Positions 6,219-57,691 of a stretch of 64,000 nucleotides of DNA are shown here, piece after piece. Position numbers and translations under genes: made by a program. The stretch lies in contig CP131057.1 of the NCBI GenBank assembly GCA_030657355.1, positions 331,501 through 395,500 of the forward strand, given 5' to 3'. Source of the DNA: Radicibacter daui. GTDB lineage: Bacteria; Pseudomonadota; Alphaproteobacteria; Radicibacterales; Radicibacteraceae. The notes beneath the pieces were generated by a model. That model saw only the letters and a list, made by a program, of their open reading frames with translations. It was not told the DNA's origin and made no database searches. Position 1 is the stretch's first letter, and each line of letters starts with the position of its first letter.

Positions 6219-7696
6219 TCTCCGTCTCCATAAGCAAGCAGTTGCAGGGGCGGGCGATGGGGTTGGCGTTCGAAACTGGCGAGCACCGGCAGGTCGAGCA
6301 GGTAGACAACCTGCTCGGCGGTGGTGAAGCGATCATCCCGGGCTTCGCGCATCAGAACGGCGATGGTGGCGAGGATGAAGCCGCCCATCAGGCAGACCGC
6401 CAGCGTGATCAGCGTGCGCGGACGCACCGGACGGTAGGGATGGGTCGGCTCGCTCAGCACCGTGGCCGGCGAGATGCGCTCGTTATTGAGATTGCCTTTG
6501 ACCAGGGCGTCGGTGTGCTGCACGGACAGCGTCTTGTAGGCGTCCTCCGCCATCTGGTATTCGCGCGTCAGCCCGTTGAAGGTGCTGCGATTGCTGCGCA
6601 GCTCGGCAAGGCGCTTGTCGAGCGTCGCCATCTGCCCTTCCAGCACCTGCACCGGCTCGGCGCTGCTTTTGGCATCGGCAGCGGCCCGCAGGTAATCGGT
6701 CTCCACGGTCTGGTAGACGGTATTGGGCGCATTCGCTGAACGCCCTTCCAGCTCCGCCTCGCGGGCGGCAACCTCCTTCTGGGCAGCGGCGATGCCGGCC
6801 CGGAGGGCGGCGGTCGCCGGGCCGCCGGGGCGATAGGTCGTCAGCATCTGGCTTTGTTTGGTCTGCAGTTCGGCAAGGCGGGTGCGGGCCTCATCGAGCG
6901 CGCGGTACTTCTCGCCATTGGCCGTCTCCGGCACCTTCTGCGGTACGGTCTGCAGCAGTTGCTCCAGTTGCTTCTGCTTCTGCTGCGCCTGGGCCAGATT
7001 GGCGCGGGCGACATGCAGGCTGGTATCCAGATCGCCGCGCTGGGTCAGCAGATCCTCTTCTTCCTGGTCGTAATTGGTGATGCCCCAGCGGTCCTTGAAC
7101 TGCTCGAGGGCGTTCTGGGCGTTGGTCAGGCGCGTTTCGGCCTGCTTGACCTCGCTGGCGAGGAAGCCCTCATGCGGGTTGTGATAGATCTGAGTCTGCC
7201 GGGCAACATAGAGGTCGATCAGCTTGCGCACCAGCTGCGGTGCCAGGTCCCGGTCGGGATGCTGGAGCGACAGGGTGATAATGTTGTCCTGTGCGCCGGC
7301 AACCGCCTGCAAGCTGTCGAGGAAGCGGGTTACCGCCGCATCCATGGGCGTGCCCCTGGATGGCGGGTTTTCGGCGATGTCGGGATAGACCCGCTCGATG
7401 CCGAAAGAACTGATGGTTGCTTGCGCCAGGTCATGACTGTGCAGGATTGCCGCATTGGCGAGCACGATCTCGCGCCGGTCAGAGGGCGTCAGCTCCGTGG
7501 CCGGCGCCCGCTCGACCTCGGGCGTCGACCAGTTGCCGAACGTGATCACCAGCTCTGCCGTCGATTCATACTTCTTGGTTGCAATCGCCAGATAGGCGAC
7601 GCCGGAGAGCACGACGGCCAGGAAGATGGTCATGAACAGGCGCCATCGTTTGAAAATGGCGACCGGCACTCCATAGGGTATTGCGGCCATATGCAT
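6215..7696 (-). CDS. Wzc/GumC-like polysaccharide co-polymerase (chain length determinant)
   Basis: 493 residues. An N-terminal membrane helix (about residues 20-40, after FKRWRLFMTIFLAVVL) and a C-terminal one (ITLAVCLMGGFILATIAVL) flank a long periplasmic region rich in coiled coil (Gln/Glu/Ala, about residues 170-400). This is the Wzz domain plus GNVR-like layout of GumC/ExoP-type PCP-2 proteins, which set chain length and connect to the outer-membrane exporter. It lacks its own kinase domain; that is the separate downstream gene. The start at MHMAAIPYG is preferred: GGAGG stands at a good distance before it, and the longer frame adds an implausible leader. Confidence 0.88.
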   Translation of the reverse strand: MHMAAIPYGVPVAIFKRWRLFMTIFLAVVLSGVAYLAIATKKYESTAELVITFGNWSTPEVERAPATELTPSDRREIVLANAAILHSHDLAQATISSFGIERVYPDIAENPPSRGTPMDAAVTRFLDSLQAVAGAQDNIITLSLQHPDRDLAPQLVRKLIDLYVARQTQIYHNPHEGFLASEVKQAETRLTNAQNALEQFKDRWGITNYDQEEEDLLTQRGDLDTSLHVARANLAQAQQKQKQLEQLLQTVPQKVPETANGEKYRALDEARTRLAELQTKQSQMLTTYRPGGPATAALRAGIAAAQKEVAAREAELEGRSANAPNTVYQTVETDYLRAAADAKSSAEPVQVLEGQMATLDKRLAELRSNRSTFNGLTREYQMAEDAYKTLSVQHTDALVKGNLNNERISPATVLSEPTHPYRPVRPRTLITLAVCLMGGFILATIAVLMREARDDRFTTAEQVVYLLDLPVLASFERQPHRPPLQLLAYGDGE

Positions 7697-7737
7697 TTGC
7701 TGTCCTCCGAAGGCTCGGGAGAGCGAACTCGTCCGGA

Positions 7738-8484
7738 TCAGTTGTTCGGGTTGAGCTGGTAGGTGACGCCGGCGTTGTACGGCAGGAACTGCTGCACATG
7801 CTGGTTCCACCAGGCGTAGGCCTCATAGACGCCGGTGCGCGGCACATAGACGGTGTCATATTGCGCAAGGCGCACATCGGCCTCGGGATGCCGGCCGGTG
7901 ATGATGCCCATGTAGTCGACAGCCAGCGCTTCGGGCTTGTCATCCTTGCCGCGACGCAGCACGAAGACCTTGGTCCGGTCCGCACTGAGCTTCACGCCGC
8001 CAGCCCGGGCAAGCGCCTGGCTGATGGTGAGGTTGGGCCCGACGGTCACGAACTCGCCCGGATCATTCACCTCACCGCCTACATAGACGCGGTTGGGCGC
8101 GAAGGAATGGACGACGACACCGATCTGCGGGTCGCTGAGCACCGATCTGTAGCGCTTGCGCAAATCCGTGGCGACCTGAGCCGGGGTGCGGCTATAGGCC
8201 GGCACATCCTCGGCAATGGCTGTGGAGATCATCCCGTCGGGACGCACCACCACATCCTCGTTCAGCTCCGGATTGAGGTAGAGGCGGACATAAAGCAGGT
8301 CACCTACCTGCAGCCGGTAAGGGGCAAGCTTCGACGGGCCGGCGGCAACCGGCATCGGCGTCAGCGGGGCGGGCGGCAGGTTGCTCGCCACGGTCTGCGC
8401 GCAACCGGTCAGCAGCGCTATCAGAAGAAGCGCTGCTGCCGGGCGGCCGGATTTTATGAAAGGAAAACGGCGACGATGGATCAT
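7738..8484 (-). CDS. Wza-like polysaccharide export lipoprotein (OPX)
   Basis: 248 residues. A lipoprotein signal peptide ends in the lipobox LLTGC. A poly_export domain follows (YRLQVGDLLYVRLYLNPEL, with VRPDGMIS), then a SLBB-type segment (VYVGGEVNDPGEF). These proteins form the outer-membrane channel for exported polysaccharide. At about 250 residues it is shorter than E. coli Wza and closer to the GumB/ExoF class. It lies between the priming transferase and the co-polymerase gene, 41 bases upstream of the latter, as expected for an export operon. Confidence 0.9.
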   Translation of the reverse strand: MIHRRRFPFIKSGRPAAALLLIALLTGCAQTVASNLPPAPLTPMPVAAGPSKLAPYRLQVGDLLYVRLYLNPELNEDVVVRPDGMISTAIAEDVPAYSRTPAQVATDLRKRYRSVLSDPQIGVVVHSFAPNRVYVGGEVNDPGEFVTVGPNLTISQALARAGGVKLSADRTKVFVLRRGKDDKPEALAVDYMGIITGRHPEADVRLAQYDTVYVPRTGVYEAYAWWNQHVQQFLPYNAGVTYQLNPNN

Positions 8485-8507
8485 GCTGGAAGCACCACTC
8501 CGTTCGA

Positions 8508-9287
8508 TCAGTAAGCGCCGCTGCGCCGCAAGACTGCGGCCGGAGTGCGCACCAGGATCAGAACGTCGCTGATGAAGCCCCAGTTGCGGGCATAGTGCCG
8601 GTCCATCTGCACACGCTCGCCATAACCGGTGTCGTTACGCCCGCTGATCTGCCAGATGCCGGTGATGCCGGGGCGGCAGCGGACATAGTCATGAAAGGCC
8701 GCGCCATAGCGCCGCACTTCGTCGGTCACGATGGGGCGGGGGCCGACAAGGCTCATGTCGCCCGACAGCACGTTGAAGATCTGCGGCAGCTCATCAAGGC
8801 TGGTGGAGCGCAGGAACTTGCCGACCCGCGTGATGCGGGGGTCGTTGCGCAGCTTGAAGTCACGCTCCCATTCCGCGCGGGCTGCCGGATCGCGGGCCAG
8901 CAGCTCGGCCAGCACGGCGCCCGCATCGGGCACCATGGTGCGGAATTTCCAGCACGGGAAGGTGCGGCCGCAGGCGCCGATGCGGCGATGGCCGAACAGC
9001 ACCGGGCCGCCATCGGCCCGGGCCAGCACGGCGATGACGATGAAGAGCGGGGAGAGCAGCAGCAGGAGCAGCGAAGCGGCCAGGATATCGAACAGGCGCT
9101 TGCTGGCCTGCGTGGCCGGGTCGCGCCGGATGCCGGGGCGCCGCGGGCTGTCCACGCGCTGGTCGATGGCGGCGGCATGCAGGCGATGCCAGTCATAGCC
9201 ACCGGTGGCGTAACCACGGCCGATAGCGGCCGATGACGACATCGTCGTGTGCTGCGGCATGCTGCCGACGAGGGCTTGCGTTGTCAT
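8508..9287 (-). CDS. Priming undecaprenyl-phosphate sugar transferase (WbaP/ExoY family)
   Basis: 259 residues. A Gly/Ser/Thr-rich N-terminal stretch precedes one strong hydrophobic segment (LFDILAASLLLLLLSPLFIV) and the bacterial sugar transferase catalytic domain, with the hallmarks KFRTM, SLDELPQ, LVGPRP and RPGITGIWQ. These enzymes start repeat-unit assembly by moving a sugar-1-phosphate onto undecaprenyl phosphate at the inner membrane. It lacks the four extra N-terminal helices of WbaP, so it is the short ExoY/PssA form. It is the first gene of the minus-strand operon. The ATG at 9287 is preferred to an in-frame TTG six codons upstream because GGGAG lies 11 bases before it. Confidence 0.92.
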   Translation of the reverse strand: MTTQALVGSMPQHTTMSSSAAIGRGYATGGYDWHRLHAAAIDQRVDSPRRPGIRRDPATQASKRLFDILAASLLLLLLSPLFIVIAVLARADGGPVLFGHRRIGACGRTFPCWKFRTMVPDAGAVLAELLARDPAARAEWERDFKLRNDPRITRVGKFLRSTSLDELPQIFNVLSGDMSLVGPRPIVTDEVRRYGAAFHDYVRCRPGITGIWQISGRNDTGYGERVQMDRHYARNWGFISDVLILVRTPAAVLRRSGAY

Positions 9288-48370: not shown

Positions 48371-50083
48371 ATGACCCACGTCCTTATGCCAGCAAGCCCG
48401 GCCATGCGTCTGCCCGTTATCGCCATCCGTCCCCTGATCGGCCTTGTCCTCACGCTGTTCTGCCTCGTGAGTGTCGGGGCCTGTCTTGCGCTGACGGGTC
48501 TGCTGGCCGCCCGTCATGAGACGATGGAAATTGGCGAAGACCTCGCGACCTCTGCCGGCGTCATGAGCAGCAAGCTCCAGGAACGCATGGCCGCAAGGCT
48601 GCATGATGTGCAGCTGACAGCGTCCATCCTGCACACCGCAGCCGACATGAAGGCCGCCCGGCCGCTGCTCGACGATCTGGCGGCCCAGATGCCGGCCTAT
48701 GCCTGGATCGGCGTGACCGATGCCAAAGGAACGGTAGAGGCTTCTACCGGCGGCATTCTGGAAGGCGCCAATGTCTCCGAGCGGCCGTGGTTTCGCTTCG
48801 GTTTTGTGCAGCCTTACCTTGGCGACGTGCACGAGGCGGTGCTGCTGGCGAAATATCTTCCCCCGGATCAGCCCGGCTCGCAGGAGCCGCTGCGTTTTGT
48901 CGATGTGTCGGCGCCGGTCCATAACGCCGCCGGTGAAACCGTCGGCGTCGTCGGGGCCCATCTGAGCTGGCGCTGGATAAGCGCAATCGGCAGCGTGCTG
49001 ACCACGACAGGCAAGAGCGACGCGAGCGCGCTGCTGCTGGATGCTGCGGGCCGGGTAATAGCCGGCGCGCCCTTTGGCACGGAGCTTTCTTCGCTTGCCA
49101 GCGTAACCCGTGCCCGGGCGGGCGGAACCGGCTTTGTGCGGGAGATGCATCCGGACGGGCAGGATTACATGGTGGGCTACACCGTCTGGCAGCCGGACCC
49201 GGCGCTGGGAAGCCTCAAATGGATCGTTTTGGCGCGCGAGCCGGCAAGCCGGGCCTTCCAGCCGGTACGGCAGCTCATGCACTATATTCTTGCCGTTGGC
49301 GGCGCGCTGCTGGTGTTCGGCCTCATCGCCGCCTGGATGATGGCGCGGGCCATTGCAGCTCCGCTGACGGGGCTTGCCGCAGCTGCGCGTGCCTTGCGCG
49401 CGGGGCCGGATGCGGTCGCCACGTTGCCCCGCGCCTACGGGCTCAAGGAAGTAAGCGAACTGTCGCTGGCGCTGCGCAGCATGGTGCTGCGCCTGTCGGT
49501 CGTCGAGCGGCGGCACGAGCTGCTGCAGGAGGAAGGAGCCCAGAAAACCCGCCGGCTGGAGAGCGATCTCACCACGGCACGCCAGCAGGCCGATACCGAT
49601 CCACTGACCGGGCTCTTCAACCGGCGTGCCCTGATGCGGGATGGCGCGGCGCTGTTCGACCGGCTGCGGGGCCAGCAGCGCAGCTTTTCCGCCGTTATTC
49701 TCGATATCGACCATTTCAAGCAGGTGAATGACCGTTTTGGCCATATGGTCGGCGATACCGCTATCCGCTTCGTCGTCGATGTTGCCGGCAAGTCCTGCCG
49801 CGACAGTGATCTTCTGGCCCGCGTGGGGGGAGAGGAGTTCGTCATTTTGCTGCCGGGCGCCGATCTTGGTGCGGCCGAAGAGCTGGCCGAACGGCTGCGT
49901 GAGCGTATCGAGCAGACATCTCTGGTGATCGAGGGCAATCATGTCCCGCTCACCATCAGCCTCGGCTGCGCCGAAGCTGCCGGCATGGAAGACCTGCAAG
50001 GCCTGCTGGACCGCGCCGACCGGGCGCTTTATGCCGCCAAGTCGGAGGGGCGTAACCGGGTACGCCGCGCCGCCGCCGTCTAG
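48371..50083 (+). CDS. Diguanylate cyclase with periplasmic Cache-like domain (first of tandem pair)
   Basis: 570 residues. A first helix (about 18-45), a periplasmic sensor of about 240 residues (dCache-like: YAWIGVTDAKGTVEASTGGI, ERPWFRFG, VGVVGAHLSWRWI), a second helix (LMHYILAVGGALLVFGLIAA), a HAMP-like linker and a GGDEF domain with DPLTGLFNRRAL, LDIDHFKQVNDRFGH and RVGGEEFVILLP. The active-site GGEEF is intact and an RDSD I-site lies just before it, so it should make c-di-GMP with product inhibition. An ATG at 48404 (MRLPVIAI) matches the paralogue's start and may be the true one. Confidence 0.9.
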   Translation: MTHVLMPASPAMRLPVIAIRPLIGLVLTLFCLVSVGACLALTGLLAARHETMEIGEDLATSAGVMSSKLQERMAARLHDVQLTASILHTAADMKAARPLLDDLAAQMPAYAWIGVTDAKGTVEASTGGILEGANVSERPWFRFGFVQPYLGDVHEAVLLAKYLPPDQPGSQEPLRFVDVSAPVHNAAGETVGVVGAHLSWRWISAIGSVLTTTGKSDASALLLDAAGRVIAGAPFGTELSSLASVTRARAGGTGFVREMHPDGQDYMVGYTVWQPDPALGSLKWIVLAREPASRAFQPVRQLMHYILAVGGALLVFGLIAAWMMARAIAAPLTGLAAAARALRAGPDAVATLPRAYGLKEVSELSLALRSMVLRLSVVERRHELLQEEGAQKTRRLESDLTTARQQADTDPLTGLFNRRALMRDGAALFDRLRGQQRSFSAVILDIDHFKQVNDRFGHMVGDTAIRFVVDVAGKSCRDSDLLARVGGEEFVILLPGADLGAAEELAERLRERIEQTSLVIEGNHVPLTISLGCAEAAGMEDLQGLLDRADRALYAAKSEGRNRVRRAAAV

Positions 50084-50185: not shown

Positions 50186-51850
50186 ATGCGATTGCCTGCC
50201 ATAGCCTTGCGGCCTCTCATCGGCAGCGTATTGACGCTGGTCTGCGTGGCTTGCATTTGCGCCTGCCTGCTGCTGACAGGCTGGCTGGCGGTGCGGCACG
50301 AAACCGCCCAGATCGGGAACAATCTCGGCATTTCCGCCAACTCTCTGCGTGACCGGTTGCAGCCGCGGCTGGAATCCCGTCTGCGCGATATCGAATTGCT
50401 GGCACTGCCGTTGGGATTGGCGCCGGGCCCGGAGGGGTTGAAGGCAAGCCGGTCCGTGCTGGAAGCCCTGGCTGAAAGGTTGCCGGCCTATGCCTGGATC
50501 GGTGCGGTTGCAACCGACGGTACGGTGCTGGCGGCCACACGCGGCGTCCACGAGGGGGAGAATGTCGCCCGTCAACCCTGGTTCCGTGCCGGGCTTGAAG
50601 GGCCCACCCTCAGCCTGCCGTCGCCGGATATGCCGGCCGGGCAGGGGGGACTCGTCGATGTTTCCGCCCCTGTCCGCGACAAGGAGGGCAAGGTGATAGG
50701 GGTTGTCGGCGCCCAGGTGAGCCGGCGCTGGATCAATACGATTACCAGCCTGCTGAGCGATGTGGCGACCGACGGGAATGGCGCGGCCAGTGCCCTGCTG
50801 CTGGATGCCGGGGGGCATGTTCTGGCCGGAGGCGAGAGCGGCAGCGATCTTTCCGCCCTTGCCAGTGTCCGGCAGGCCCGGTCAGGCGAAGGCGGCTATC
50901 TGCGCGAGCGCTGGCTGGACGGGAAGGACCATCTTGTCGGTTACGCGCTCTGGCGTCCTTCCCGCAGGGTGGCCGATCTTGGCTGGGTGGTGCTGGTGAG
51001 TGAACCGGTCAGCTCGGCGCTCACGCCGGTGAAGCAACTGCTTTATTCCATCATGGCGGCCGGCGCGTTGCTGCTGGTTCTGGCGCTGATGCTGGCCTGG
51101 CTCCTGGCCCGGGCCATCTCCGCCCCGCTCAGCGGCCTCGCCGCCGCTGCCCGGGCGCTGCAGATCGGCGTTGATGGCGATGGTATCCTGCCGCGCGCTT
51201 ATGGCCTGCGCGAGGTCGGCGATCTTTCACTGGCGCTGCGCAGCATGCTGATGCGCCTTTCTGTGGCGGAGCGGCAGCGCGAAAAGCTGCAGTCCGAAGG
51301 GGAACAAACGGCACGCCGGCTGGAGGATGATCTGAGCCATGCCCGCCACATGGCCGATACCGATCCGCTGACCGGCCTCTTCAACCGGCGGGCCCTGATG
51401 CGCGATGGCCTCGACCTTCTTGCGCGCCTTTGCCAGCAGGGGCGCTGCCTCTCGGCCATAATGCTCGACATCGACCATTTCAAGCTGGTGAATGACAGGT
51501 TCGGCCACATGGTGGGGGATGCCGCCCTGCTTTTTGTTGCCGAATGCGCCCGGCAATCCTACCGCGAGAGCGATCTTATCGCCCGTATCGGCGGAGAGGA
51601 GTTCACCATCCTCCTGCCCGGTGCGGATCTCCGCACGGCGCGGGAACTGGCCGAGCGCCTGCGTACGCGCATCGGGCAGGGTTTCCAGACCGCCGAGGGG
51701 ATAAAAGTGTCGCTGACCGTCAGCCTCGGCTGCGCCGAGGTCAAGCCCGGAGAGGGGCTGGAGGCGATGCTGGACCGGGCCGACCGCGCGCTCTACGCGG
51801 CCAAGACGGATGGCCGCAACCGGGTGTGTATCGCGGCAATGTCCGGCTGA
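50186..51850 (+). CDS. Diguanylate cyclase with periplasmic Cache-like domain (second of tandem pair)
   Basis: 554 residues, the same architecture as the gene before it and clearly a duplicate: it opens MRLPAIALRPLIGSVLTLVC (versus MRLPVIAIRPLIGLVLTLFC), and shares YAWIGAVATDGTVLAATRGV, QPWFRAG, and the GGDEF core DPLTGLFNRRALMRDG and ARIGGEEFTILLPGADL. The GGEEF and RESD I-site are intact. The two differ most in the periplasmic domain, which suggests different signals. It lies about 100 bases after the first copy on the same strand; whether they are co-transcribed is not clear. Confidence 0.9.
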   Translation: MRLPAIALRPLIGSVLTLVCVACICACLLLTGWLAVRHETAQIGNNLGISANSLRDRLQPRLESRLRDIELLALPLGLAPGPEGLKASRSVLEALAERLPAYAWIGAVATDGTVLAATRGVHEGENVARQPWFRAGLEGPTLSLPSPDMPAGQGGLVDVSAPVRDKEGKVIGVVGAQVSRRWINTITSLLSDVATDGNGAASALLLDAGGHVLAGGESGSDLSALASVRQARSGEGGYLRERWLDGKDHLVGYALWRPSRRVADLGWVVLVSEPVSSALTPVKQLLYSIMAAGALLLVLALMLAWLLARAISAPLSGLAAAARALQIGVDGDGILPRAYGLREVGDLSLALRSMLMRLSVAERQREKLQSEGEQTARRLEDDLSHARHMADTDPLTGLFNRRALMRDGLDLLARLCQQGRCLSAIMLDIDHFKLVNDRFGHMVGDAALLFVAECARQSYRESDLIARIGGEEFTILLPGADLRTARELAERLRTRIGQGFQTAEGIKVSLTVSLGCAEVKPGEGLEAMLDRADRALYAAKTDGRNRVCIAAMSG

Positions 51851-53031: not shown

Positions 53032-54879
53032 GTGCCGACCTATCGCTCCCGAACCACCACCCATGGCCGCAACATGGCCGGTGCGCGCGGCCTCTGGCGC
53101 GCCACGGGCATGAAGGATGGAGATTTCGGCAAGCCGATCATTGCGGTCGTCAACTCCTTCACCCAGTTCGTGCCCGGCCACGTCCACCTCAAGGATCTGG
53201 GCCAGCTGGTGGCCCGCGAGATCGAGAAGGCCGGCGGTGTTGCCAAGGAATTCAACACCATTGCGGTCGATGACGGTATCGCGATGGGCCATGACGGCAT
53301 GCTCTATTCGTTGCCCTCGCGCGATCTGATCGCCGACAGCGTGGAATATATGGTGAATGCCCATTGCGCCGACGCGATGGTCTGCATCTCCAATTGCGAC
53401 AAGATCACCCCGGGCATGCTGATGGCGGCGCTGCGCCTCAACATTCCGGTCGTCTTCGTCTCCGGCGGCCCGATGGAAGCCGGCAAGGTGCTGCTGGGCG
53501 GCAAGAAGCGCGCGCTCGACCTCGTCGACGCGATGGTCGCCGCTGCCGACGACAAGGTGAGCGACGAGGATGTGAAGATCATCGAGCGCTCGGCCTGCCC
53601 GACCTGCGGTTCCTGCTCCGGCATGTTCACCGCCAACTCGATGAACTGCCTCACCGAGGCGCTGGGTCTTTCGTTGCCGGGCAATGGCTCGACGCTGGCG
53701 ACCCATGCCGACCGTGAGCGCCTGTTCCTGGAGGCCGGCCATCTGGTGGTCGATCTTGCCCGCCGCTATTACGAGCAGGACGATGCTTCCGTGCTGCCGC
53801 GTTCCGTCGCCTCCTTCAAGGCGTTCGAGAATGCGATGACGCTCGACATCTCCATGGGCGGTTCCACCAACACGGTGCTGCATCTGCTCGCCGCCGCCCA
53901 TGAGGCCGGCGTCGACTTCACCATGAAGGATATCGACCGCCTCTCCCGCAAGGTGCCGGTGCTCTGCAAGGTCGCCCCGTCCGTGCCCGACATCCATATG
54001 GAAGATGTGCACCGCGCCGGCGGCATCATGGGCATCCTCGGCGAGCTGGATCGTGGCGGGCTCATCCACACCGACCTGCCGACCGTGCACGCCGCCACGC
54101 TCGGCGAGGCGCTTGATCGCTGGGATATCAAGCGCACCGAAAGCGAAGCGGTCAGCAACTTCTTCCGCGCCGCGCCCGGCGGTGTGCCGACGCAGGTGGC
54201 TTTCAGCCAGAACCAGCGCTGGCGCGAGCTGGACAGCGACCGCGAGACGGGCGCCATCCGCAGCGTCGAGCATGCCTTCTCCAAGGATGGTGGCCTCGCT
54301 GTCCTCTACGGCAATCTTGCGGTTGATGGCTGCATCGTGAAGACGGCGGGCGTTGACGCCTCCATCCTCAAATTCTCCGGTCCGGCCCGCATCTTCGAAA
54401 GCCAGGATGCTTCGGTGGAAGCTATTCTGGCCGGCGAGATCAAGGCTGGCGACGTGCTGGTCATCCGCTATGAAGGCCCGCGTGGTGGCCCCGGCATGCA
54501 GGAAATGCTCTATCCGACGAGCTATCTGAAGTCCAAGGGCCTCGGCAAGGCCTGTGCCCTCATCACCGACGGGCGTTTTTCCGGCGGCACCTCCGGCCTT
54601 TCCATCGGCCATGTCTCGCCGGAAGCGGCTGAAGGCGGCGCCATCGGTCTGGTTGAGGAAGGCGATATCATCGAGATCGATATCCCGAACCGCAGCATCA
54701 ACATGAAGGTGGATGAGGCGGAGATCGCCCGCCGTCGCACCGCGCGTGATGCGGCCAATGGCTGGCACCCGGCCGCACCGCGCCAGCGTGCCATCTCCCC
54801 GGCACTCCAGGCCTACGCCGCCATGACCACAAGCGCAGCCCGCGGCGCCGTGCGGGATGTGACGCAGTTGAAGCGTTGA
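53032..54879 (+). CDS. ilvD: Dihydroxy-acid dehydratase
   Basis: 615 residues from a GTG start with AAGGA upstream; length equals E. coli IlvD. Hallmarks: [30 protein letters not shown] (Cys122), [20 protein letters not shown] (Cys195), [20 protein letters not shown] and [20 protein letters not shown]. Cys122 and Cys195 fall at the iron-sulfur cluster positions known for E. coli. It makes 2-keto acids for valine and isoleucine synthesis, and for pantothenate. A rho-independent terminator follows. No other ilv genes are in this window. Confidence 0.97.
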
Positions 54880-54904
54880 TTGAAATATATTGATGGAACC
54901 GCTG

Positions 54905-54940
54905 GAAGGGGAAGGCGCCAACCTTCCCCTTCTTTTTATT
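54905..54940 (+). terminator. Rho-independent terminator of ilvD
   Basis: GAAGGGGAAGG (54905-54915) and CCTTCCCCTTC (54922-54932) with a 6-base loop, followed by TTTTTATT. It marks the left end of the AT-rich islet. Confidence 0.9.
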
Positions 54941-54957
54941 TCAGCTGTGATGGTAAA

Positions 54958-54963
54958 TATAAT
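54958..54963 (+). promoter_or_regulatory. Candidate -10 element of the islet genes
   Basis: TATAAT, 45 bases upstream of the hydrolase ATG. No good -35 is seen (TTATTT at about 16 bases), so this is tentative. Confidence 0.4.
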
Positions 54964-55007
54964 ACAATGTCCGATATTAATAAATAATTTGATCTACGGG
55001 GCTGCCA

Positions 55008-56280
55008 ATGACTTGCGAAGTGGCCATAATGAATAGCAATGCTATTGTCCTGGCGGCAGACAGTGCTATGACAATGACAAGATGGGAAGGAGGCAAGGAA
55101 GTAAAGAGATATCACAATGGCGCAAATAAGATATTTCAACTTTCAGAGTACGAACCCGTTGGATTAATGATTTATAATGATGCGAATGTGCAAGGGGTGC
55201 CTTGGGAGCTTTTAGTTAAGGAATATAGGAAGCACATAGGGTCTACTAGCTTTCAGAATATAAAGCTCTATGCGGAAGATTTTTTCCGTTTTGTTCAAAG
55301 TTTTTCTGTGTTCACTGTTGATTATAAAGAAAAAAATTTTATAAACTCATGCTCTTCAATCGGAAAAATATTTTTTAGGTATATTTTTATTCAAAATGAT
55401 GCGGTTAAATTCGCCGAGTCTCAAGATCAAAAAAATTTAGAACTAGATAAAATTATCCGAAATGAGATTTCTGTACTTGATTCTGCTGAAATTCCGGCCG
55501 GATTTATTGATCAGGATATAGATGAAGCTATCGCTAAGTATGGCGATTCAGTAGCAAATAACATTAGAGATTATGCATCTGGGGACGAGCTAGCTTTAAA
55601 TTTTATCGGGTTGGATTTTGATTTATTGGCTCAATTTAGTATTAAATCTCTATATAAAAAGAGAACTTTTATGGATAGTACCGGCATCGTAGTGGCTGGT
55701 TATGGAGAAGATGATTTTTTTTCCGAGTTTTATAGAGTATACCTCGTACGGAAGTATACTTGATAAAATAGCTTACGACGAAAAATCTAGTAACAGCATT
55801 AATCTAGAAACAGTAGCTGGTATCAAGGCATTTGCTACAGACGCTATGATATCGACATTCTTATTTGGTATAAGTGCTAGCGGATTTTCTACTGCTATAG
55901 ATGAGTGCAAGAAAGAAATAGAAAATGTTGCAAGATCGACAGGTTTTGAAAATCATCCGGATTTTTTGTCAAGTTTAAGTTCTTCAGTTGGAGAATTTGG
56001 AAAAAATATAATGGAGGAAGCTAGAAAAACACATTATTGGCCATTGTGGAATGTTATAACATCCCTTCCGTTGGACGATATGGCTGAATTAGCTGAGACC
56101 CTTGTGCGTCTTGAGTCATTAAAGGAAAAGGTAACTCAGCCTACTCAATCGGTAGGAGGTCCCGTTGATGTCGCTATCATCACCAAGCACGACGGATTCA
56201 TATGGAAGAAAAGAAAATTATATTTCGAAGGCAACCTTAATCCGAGATATTTTGCTAAGATAAACGCGCTCGGAAAATAA
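55008..56280 (+). pseudogene. Proteasome/HslV-like N-terminal-threonine hydrolase, frame broken at a T8 run
   Basis: Two overlapping frames (55008-55763 and the +1 frame to 56280) read as one protein of about 423 residues if one T of the T8 run at 55715-55722 is skipped: VVAGYGEDDFF then PSFIEY. The N-terminus after Met is TCEVAIMNSNAIVLAADSAM, placing Thr1 and Asp17 exactly as in proteasome beta subunits and HslV; a Lys (ANKIF, residue 40) could be the third catalytic residue. The core fold should cover about 200 residues; the rest (LESLKEKV, VGGPVDVAIITKHDGFIWKK near the end) is unlike proteasomes. Function unknown; proteolysis or amide hydrolysis is inferred. The gene may be inactive, slippage-controlled, or intact with a sequencing error. 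GGGG lies six bases before the ATG. Confidence 0.8.
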
Positions 56281-56300
56281 ACCGCTGTCAGGGGATTCAG

Positions 56301-56480
56301 ATGGATTGGACAAAATATTACTGGAACTCTGTTGCATCCACACCAAATGTCAGGGCCGAAATTGTCCTCGCGGAAGGTAAGTTGGATGTAAATGAAAGCA
56401 AAATGGAAGACAGCGAATCAATCAAGTTATATAAAAATCTTGTTTCTGAAGCTATGAAGAGGGGGTTGAGTGAAGTTTGA
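56301..56480 (+). CDS. 59-residue small protein downstream of the hydrolase
   Basis: Starts MDWTKYYWNSVASTPNVRAE and ends AMKRGLSEV; 59 residues, charged, with no signal peptide or membrane helix. AGGGGA lies six bases before the ATG and the start is 20 bases after the hydrolase stop, so the two are likely co-transcribed. It shares the low-GC codon use of the hydrolase. No family is recognised. It could be a partner, regulator or immunity-type protein of the hydrolase, but that is speculation. Confidence 0.65.
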   Translation: MDWTKYYWNSVASTPNVRAEIVLAEGKLDVNESKMEDSESIKLYKNLVSEAMKRGLSEV

Positions 56481-56619
56481 TCTGTTATTAATTAGCTGAT
56501 TAATGGCATGATTTAGTTATTTATCCAATTAAATAGAATATTAATTTATTTTATGATAATATCAAGTTGATAAAGAGCGCCTCCCTACTTGTAGATTTTT
56601 CTCCTGATGCAGGATCTGT

Positions 56620-57672
56620 CTAGGTCAGCCGCCGGCTGCCATCAGCCGAAAAGAGGTGGATGGCTTCAGCATCGATCCGCAGGCGGATCGTGGCTCCGGG
56701 GGCAAGTGACACGCGCTCGCGAAAGACACCGATAACCCGCGTCCCGCCCAGCATCATGGTCACCTGCGTTTCGGATCCCATTGGCTCGACGAGCAGAATC
56801 TCCGCCGGGACGCCTGTGTCATCGAGCGCAAAGCCTTCCGGCCGGACGCCATAGACGGCCCTGGTTCCGGCAAGAGGTGCTGCCCCGTCTGCCAGCGGCA
56901 GGAGGACACCCGGAGCGGCAAAACCCTGCGCCGTAATCTCCCCGACCAGAAAATTCATTGCCGGCGAACCGATAAAACCGGCGACGAACTGGTTGGCCGG
57001 CTGGTCGTAAAGCGCCAGCGGAGCACCGACCTGCTCGACCCGGCCACCGTTCAGCACGACGATCTTGTCCGCCATCGTCATCGCTTCCACCTGGTCGTGC
57101 GTCACATAGATCGTGGTGGTCCTGAGTTTCTGGTGCAGGCCCTTGATCTCCGCCCGCATGACGACGCGCAGCTTGGCGTCAAGATTGGAGAGCGGCTCGT
57201 CGAACAGGAAAACCTGCGGATCGCGCACAATGGCCCGGCCCATGGCAACGCGCTGGCGCTGGCCGCCGGAAAGCTGGCGGGGATAACGCTCCAGCAGGGG
57301 GCCGAGGCCGAGAATATCGGCGGCCCATTTCACCCGCTCGGCAATCTCCGCTTTGCCGGCACCGCGATGCTCCAGCGAAAAGCCCATGTTGGTGGCAACC
57401 GTCATATGTGGATAGAGCGCATAGTTCTGGAACACCATGGCGATGTCCCGGTCCTTGGGATCGAGGTTGTTGACCACGCGCCCACCGATGCGAACCTCCC
57501 CGCCGGTGATGGTCTCCAACCCCGCGATCATGCGCAGCAGGGTGGACTTGCCGCAGCCGGACGGGCCGACCAGCACGACGAATTCGCCGTCGTTTATCTC
57601 AAGATCCACGCCATGGATGATGTCGGCAGCGCCGTAGCTCTTGCGAACCTCGTTAAGGGTAACTTCAGCCAT
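56620..57672 (-). CDS. Sugar ABC transporter ATPase (MalK/UgpC type)
   Basis: 350 residues from the ATG at 57672. Walker A is [18 protein letters not shown], the signature [16 protein letters not shown], Walker [17 protein letters not shown] and the switch [14 protein letters not shown]. The C-terminal OB-type regulatory domain ([16 protein letters not shown]) is present, as in CUT1 sugar importers. It powers uptake with the two permeases and the binding protein of the same operon and is its last gene. Convergent with the AT-rich islet. Confidence 0.95.
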
Positions 57673-57691
57673 CAATCGGATTTCCGCTTCT

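What the first reader, a model, noticed from the sequence alone, without database searches (positions are those of the whole stretch)
55008..56280. Proteasome-like N-terminal-threonine hydrolase with a long C-terminal region
After Met removal the protein would begin with Thr1, and Asp17 falls at the exact position of the proteasome/HslV catalytic Asp; a later Lys could complete the site. The total length (about 423 residues) and the C-terminal part are unlike HslV, Anbu or BPH. No HslU, Mpa or other ATPase partner is next to it. Known: Ntn hydrolases of this fold self-process and attack amide bonds. Inferred: this is a stand-alone or small-partner hydrolase of unknown role in an acquired islet.
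Basis: partly seen in the sequence, partly recalled or inferred. Interest (0 to 1): 0.8.

Follow-up and report, generated by a model that had tools for sequence, protein, structure and literature searches.

The report
Frameshifted proteasome-like hydrolase plus small partner
The gene is a real but frameshifted member of a widespread, uncharacterised family of proteasome-like enzymes carried by phages, plasmids, bacteria and archaea (named PMI-4 in 2021), and across the family it travels with a small, mostly unannotated partner gene that earlier work did not report.

Summary
An AT-rich islet (about 54,880-56,620) lies between ilvD and an ABC-transporter operon and encodes a 423-residue protein. 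It is split by one extra T in an 8-T run. Read through, it matches phrog_5990 along its whole length and is predicted with confidence (pLDDT 89, pTM 0.87) as a proteasome beta-like Ntn fold. Thr1, Asp17 and the active-site Lys are invariant in 143 diverse homologues (one Ser1).

The 'long C-terminal region' is not an extra domain: two helical inserts interrupt the core, whose last strands are at the C-terminus.

The fold is not new. It fits PMI-4 of Fuchs, Alva and Lupas 2021 (PMC8665760), an uncharacterised family for which they found no telling gene context.

What appears unreported is a second gene. A 35-75-codon ORF directly follows the hydrolase in most loci. A profile of 47 such proteins found 58 matches among 17,364 small ORFs, and all 58 sit behind an intact or decayed PMI-4 gene. 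The window has an ORF at that position (56301-56480), but it does not match the profile.

Best reading: a regulated stand-alone threonine hydrolase and its small partner, spread as mobile cargo, perhaps for host protection. Function is inferred; the window copy is probably a recent pseudogene or an assembly error.

The parts
54880..56620 (.). AT-rich acquired islet between ilvD (53032-54879) and a ugpC-type ABC transporter gene (56620-57675, minus)
   Evidence: GC 30-43% against 60-69% in the flanks; DNA similarity of other replicons to the flanks stops at about 54,873 and resumes at about 56,625
55008..55763 (+). PMI-4-type proteasome-like hydrolase, first reading frame: first strands, H1/H2, first helical insert, start of the second half of the core
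   Evidence: phrog_5990 3.5e-46 over positions 1-239; AF2 model of the read-through protein
55011..55013 (+). codon of the nucleophile Thr (residue 1 after Met removal)
   Evidence: 142 of 143 homologues Thr, one Ser; 28/28 in the set not selected by pattern
55059..55061 (+). codon of catalytic Asp17 (D18 with Met)
   Evidence: 143/143; 28/28 in the set not selected by pattern
55128..55130 (+). codon of the Lys that corresponds to proteasome Lys33 (K41 with Met here, K37 in the reference homologue)
   Evidence: 143/143; 28/28 in the set not selected by pattern; in register with the beta-subunit Lys33 in a profile alignment
55715..55722 (+). run of 8 T at which the reading frame is broken by +1
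   Evidence: sequence; only homopolymer of 8 or more in the window; family similarity continues across it in the other frame
55723..56280 (+). PMI-4-type hydrolase, second reading frame: core strands, H3/H4 with long insert, last core strands (SVGGPVDVAIITKHDGFIWKKRK)
   Evidence: phrog_5990 1.3e-34 over positions 240-426; this profile region also meets Thermoplasma proteasome beta, E 0.03
56301..56480 (+). 59-codon ORF 20 bases downstream, in the position of the family's small partner gene; preceded by a purine-rich AGGGG
   Evidence: position and length match the conserved partner; the window's own sequence does not reach significance against the partner profile

Best explanation
The locus is a horizontally acquired two-gene module. 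Gene 1 encodes a stand-alone proteasome-like threonine hydrolase of the PMI-4 kind. Methionine aminopeptidase exposes Thr1, which with Asp17 and Lys attacks an amide bond. Two long helical inserts, after H1/H2 and between H3/H4, replace the ring-forming surfaces, so the enzyme probably works as a monomer or a small assembly without an ATPase. Gene 2 encodes a small, fast-evolving protein of about 35-75 residues, with a short aromatic-Pro motif and a C-terminal helix. It lies so close behind the hydrolase that the two are probably co-expressed, and it most likely binds the hydrolase and sets its activity or substrate. The pair is cargo on temperate phages, satellites and plasmids and occurs as lone islets in bacteria and archaea. 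This suggests a conditional host-benefit function, with protection against other phages the leading guess. In this window the hydrolase frame is broken, so the copy is either newly inactivated or misassembled. Shown: fold (predicted), active-site conservation, gene pair, mobility. Inferred: monomer state, binding, protective role.
For: Fold: AF2 pLDDT 89.2/pTM 0.87 for the window protein and 90.8/0.86 for an intact homologue. All 19 PDB hits with E<=1e-3 for the window protein are 20S proteasome subunits; for the homologue, 14 of 15 are proteasome subunits and one is Anbu. PF00227 is the Pfam family that most members match (7 of 60, best E 0.00024). Active site: T, D and K in 142-143 of 143, and 28/28 each in the set not selected by pattern. 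Upstream stop within 10 codons in 101 of 142, so little room for a propeptide. Partner: 40-90-aa ORF in 108/139 loci against 33 in shuffles; the partner profile hits 58 of 17,364 small ORFs, all behind an intact or decayed PMI-4 gene. Mobility: phages, satellites, plasmids and patchy occurrence, 10 of 398 genomes of the phylum.
Against: No activity, complex or phenotype has been shown for any family member. The window's small ORF is not recognisably similar to the partner profile. The window hydrolase sits on a long branch (2.22) and is frameshifted, so this copy may do nothing. Neighbours of chromosomal copies are mostly housekeeping genes, and PADLOC families are not clearly enriched. Foldseek TM-scores are modest (target-normalised about 0.37-0.56) because of the inserts. 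The Ser129-type G-S-G motif before H3 is replaced by F-A-Q.
Confidence: 0.6

Rival explanations
1. Toxin-antitoxin reading: the hydrolase is a toxic protease kept silent by the small protein, and the pair stabilises the mobile element or kills infected cells.
For: Two-gene operon with a small, quickly diverging partner, on phages, satellites and plasmids.
Against: Gene order is large-then-small. A decayed hydrolase with its small gene still intact exists (L186), and the window shows the same pattern, as expected if the small protein is harmless alone; this does not separate inhibitor from activator. No toxicity data.
Confidence: 0.2
2. Ligase reading: like connectase, the enzyme forms a Thr1-acyl intermediate with one specific partner, and the small protein is its dedicated substrate, which is cut or joined to another protein.
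For: Connectase is a monomeric proteasome homologue with helical inserts that works as a specific ligase (PMC8665760). The strict pairing with one small protein fits a dedicated substrate.
Against: The small proteins share only a loose motif, and phage versions differ strongly. No invariant cleavable motif is seen.
Confidence: 0.15
3. General proteostasis reading: an uncapped peptidase that clears unfolded proteins under stress, with the small protein as a cap or adaptor; phages merely spread it.
For: Found as lone islets among housekeeping genes in archaea and bacteria that also have HslV or proteasomes; Fuchs et al. suggest such a role for uncapped homologues.
Against: Patchy presence (10/398 genomes) and repeated carriage by phage satellites of about 10 kb argue for a conditional cargo trait.
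Confidence: 0.2
4. The broken frame is functional: transcriptional slippage or frameshifting at the 8-T run makes a low level of full-length enzyme.
For: The downstream frame is intact for 184 codons; the run is the only such homopolymer in the window.
Against: The intact family members read across this site in one frame; a recent indel or assembly error explains the same facts. Broken copies also occur elsewhere (L017, L019, L085, L089, L196).
Confidence: 0.1

Closest known systems
PMI-4, 'proteasome homolog with multiple insertions' (Fuchs, Alva, Lupas 2021, PMC8665760)
   Same: Proteasome-like fold, Thr/Asp/Lys triad, no propeptide, long insert after H1/H2 and between H3/H4. Broad spread in Proteobacteria, Firmicutes, Actinobacteria, Bacteroidetes, Euryarchaeota and phages. 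The only PMI subfamily with several hundred members.
   Different: The window copy is frameshifted and divergent. The paper reports no telling gene context; here a conserved small downstream gene is found. The paper's representative (HDY66466.1) could not be compared directly.
phrog_5990 (PHROGs v4, unknown function)
   Same: Full-length profile match to both halves
   Different: No function assigned; it is the phage-side record of the same family.
Proteasome beta subunit / HslV (PF00227)
   Same: Core strands and helices in order; T1, D17, K33 in register
   Different: About 430 aa instead of about 190, with inserts at ring contacts, no ATPase gene, and F-A-Q in place of the G-S-G before H3
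Connectase
   Same: Proteasome-like, acts as a monomer, uses helical inserts to select its substrate (PMC8665760)
   Different: Connectase lacks H1/H2 and has its insert between S3 and S4; the window protein has H1/H2 and inserts elsewhere
Anbu and BPH
   Same: Stand-alone proteasome homologues without an ATPase neighbour
   Different: Shorter, ring or split-ring forming, without the two inserts

Membership tests
Proteasome-like Ntn hydrolases | alpha-beta-beta-alpha proteasome fold | tested here: met
   AF2 pLDDT 89.2, Foldseek best hits all proteasome subunits, E 8e-5; intact homologue E 3e-5. Predicted, not solved.
Proteasome-like Ntn hydrolases | Thr1/Ser1, Asp17, Lys33 conserved | tested here: met
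   142T+1S, 143D, 143K of 143; 28/28 each without pattern selection
Proteasome-like Ntn hydrolases | free Thr1 and hydrolysis of a peptide or amide bond | not testable with these tools
   needs protein and mass spectrometry
PMI-4 | helical insert after H1/H2 | tested here: met
   helices 104-129, 139-158, 168-191, 204-216 between H2 (85-98) and strand 225-231
PMI-4 | insert between H3 and H4 | tested here: met
   helices 290-310 and 317-351 between 279-286 and 355-376
PMI-4 | no insert between S3 and S4 (distinguishes PMI-5/6 and connectase) | tested here: met
   short turn between strands 21-27 and 30-36
PMI-4 | large spread over bacterial phyla, Euryarchaeota and phages | tested here: met
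   at least 428 stretches in GTDB contigs including archaea, 135 in viral contigs
PMI-4 | clusters with the published PMI-4 sequences | not tested
   HDY66466.1 and the Mendeley alignments are not held
HslV / 20S proteasome | cognate AAA+ unfoldase gene (HslU, Mpa, PAN) next to it | tested here: not met
   no ATPase in the islet; partner is a 35-75-aa protein
HslV / 20S proteasome | closed ring assembly | not testable with these tools
   inserts at ring contacts make it unlikely (inference; PMC8665760)
Known anti-phage defence system | match to a described defence protein model | tested here: not met
   no PADLOC match for the window proteins at E<=10; only scattered weak matches for 60 homologues
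Known anti-phage defence system | enriched in defence islands | tested here: inconclusive
   R-M, MADS-type and PD-T4-6 models match a few of 119 neighbour genes, many neighbours housekeeping, no background measured
Type II toxin-antitoxin | toxicity of one gene neutralised by the other | not testable with these tools
   needs expression tests

The most novel reading that the evidence does not exclude
A two-component system found across bacteria, archaea, temperate phages and phage satellites, in which a non-ring proteasome relative is switched by a dedicated small protein and protects the host of the element from competing phages. It would be an anti-phage effector built on the proteasome fold.
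Probability: 0.25. Interest if true: 0.85.

Novelty: new variant of a known kind. Interest (0 to 1): 0.5.

Why it matters
PMI-4 is one of the largest uncharacterised branches of the proteasome family, and the 2021 survey found no gene context to suggest a function. A strictly linked small partner gene, mostly unannotated (for example in E. coli), gives a first concrete handle. Co-expression, pull-down and phage challenge of the pair become direct tests. If the pair proves protective, it would tie proteasome evolution to conflict between mobile elements.

Tried and rejected
A direct related-loci search with the window protein found nothing, because the window sequence is too divergent; an alignment query worked. 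A link with bacterial ubiquitin-like operons (E1/ThiF plus multiubiquitin) was followed: 5 of 9 plasmid copies lie within about 4 kb of one. These are only about two rhizobial lineages, and just 2 of about 75 chromosomal loci hold an E1-like gene, so it is not a general partner. Membership in HslV, BPH or Anbu was rejected on size and inserts. A phage-structural role was rejected because satellites, plasmids and archaeal chromosomes carry the gene and it can lie against the late-gene direction. hhalign against small beta and HslV alignments gave low probability (6-10% with beta subunits, under 1% with HslV alone), though the active-site residues aligned in register with the beta subunits; the fold model carries the case instead. 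Empty-site comparison in close relatives was not possible, since none are held. A partner profile did not recognise the window's own small ORF.

Full report
Observation. Frame A (55008-55763) and frame B (to 56280) join at an 8-T run, 55715-55722, the only homopolymer of eight or more in the window. Both halves match one profile, phrog_5990, over positions 1-239 and 240-426 (3.5e-46, 1.3e-34). Reading the word TCCG as one residue gives a 423-residue protein. The second frame is open for 184 codons, about 3e-7 by chance at this base composition, so the break is recent or artificial. The islet has 30-43% GC inside DNA of 60-69%, and similarity of other rhizobial and related replicons to the flanks ends near 54,873 and resumes near 56,625.

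Fold and active site. No Pfam, NCBIfam or PADLOC model recognises the window protein. With 109 homologues as alignment, AlphaFold2 gives pLDDT 89.2 and pTM 0.87. The element order is that of a proteasome beta subunit, with extra helices after H1/H2 (104-216) and between H3 and H4 (290-351). All 19 PDB matches with E<=0.001 are 20S proteasome subunits. An intact homologue gives 14 proteasome subunits and one Anbu chain. Of 60 homologues scanned one by one, PF00227 is the family most often matched (7 of 60). In 143 non-redundant sequences the second residue is Thr in 142 and Ser in one, and Asp18 and Lys37 are invariant. The patterns used to fetch many of them include the Thr and Asp, so the 28 found by tblastn or profile search were counted apart: 28/28 for each. 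The upstream in-frame stop lies within 10 codons of the start in 101 of 142, so there is little room for a propeptide; Met removal before Thr is established methionine aminopeptidase chemistry (own knowledge). The G-S-G motif that precedes H3 in the proteasome and HslV sequences looked at is replaced by F-A-Q, a difference in the second shell of the site (position by inference).

What it is called. Fuchs, Alva and Lupas (PMC8665760) described 22 proteasome-like subfamilies. Only PMI-4 combines inserts at both sites, hundreds of members, many bacterial phyla, Euryarchaeota and phages. I therefore file the window protein as PMI-4-like; direct comparison with their sequences was not possible. They state that no genomic context suggestive of function was found. 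No later functional work on PMI-4 turned up in the open library.

The partner gene. Directly after the hydrolase most loci have a small ORF: 108 of 139 loci have one of 40-90 codons starting within -40 to +60, against 33 after shuffling the downstream DNA. Shorter ones (35-39 codons) are conserved in a gammaproteobacterial group. An iterated profile of 47 of them, consensus roughly KvyrSxeEfEKxYFPks...DPxxxGxxLAkesLekiRxxL, separates from all shuffled decoys. Among 17,364 small ORFs in all fetched loci it has 58 matches at E<0.01. Fifty-two start within 150 bases of the hydrolase stop, five more lie at the same place but have an earlier start codon or a broken hydrolase, and the last, on the other strand of L186, follows a decayed second PMI-4 gene. 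Groups specific to gamma prophages (ELREWQKKFNP; KDFF) and Bacillota (FFNLP) behave the same way. In E. coli the gene occurs in 9 of 5,426 genomes; the two copies looked at lie in prophage DNA, and each has a 49-codon partner that RefSeq does not annotate. The window's candidate (56301-56480, preceded by AGGGG) has the right place and size but no significant similarity to the profile.

Context. Copies sit in phages between Q and lysis genes or reversed against the late genes, at the end of a streptococcal prophage, near or at the end of streptococcal satellites, on plasmids and as lone genes among housekeeping genes. The family is patchy (10 of 398 genomes of the phylum) and phyla are mixed on the tree. 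Four rhizobial plasmid copies and one from Mesorhizobium lie beside E1/multiubiquitin operons, but other copies do not.

Mechanism. Shown: predicted fold, triad, gene pair, mobility. Inferred: Thr1 is exposed by Met removal; the inserts block rings; the partner binds and controls the enzyme; the pair serves the element's host, perhaps against phages. The alternatives (toxin-antitoxin, ligase with the partner as substrate, proteostasis) cannot be separated by sequence. The window copy itself is most likely inactive unless the 8-T run is an assembly error or is bypassed by slippage.

Noticed in passing
L186 (VXYV01000049.1), 7489-7725 minus and 8001-9284 plus: Two divergent PMI-4 plus small-gene modules; the minus-strand hydrolase is decayed while its small gene is intact.
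   Followed up: partly
L017, L018, L020, L022 (Rhizobium and Mesorhizobium plasmids): PMI-4 copies within about 4 kb of multiubiquitin/E1 (in part also DUF6527 and Clp-type) operons, two apparent lineages.
   Followed up: partly
L172 (Bacteroidetes MAG), start at about 389: A PMI-4 homologue with Ser instead of Thr at the nucleophile position.
   Followed up: no
L017, L019, L085, L089, L196: Other frame-broken or truncated PMI-4 copies, so decay of this gene is not unusual.
   Followed up: partly
G000:C1:225770-226291 and C1:1292665-1293186: The window's genome also has HslV and a second, weakly matching PF00227 protein.
   Followed up: no
window 48371-50083 and 50186-51850: Two adjacent similar sensor/diguanylate-cyclase-like genes (GGEEF motifs), apparently a tandem duplication.
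   Followed up: no
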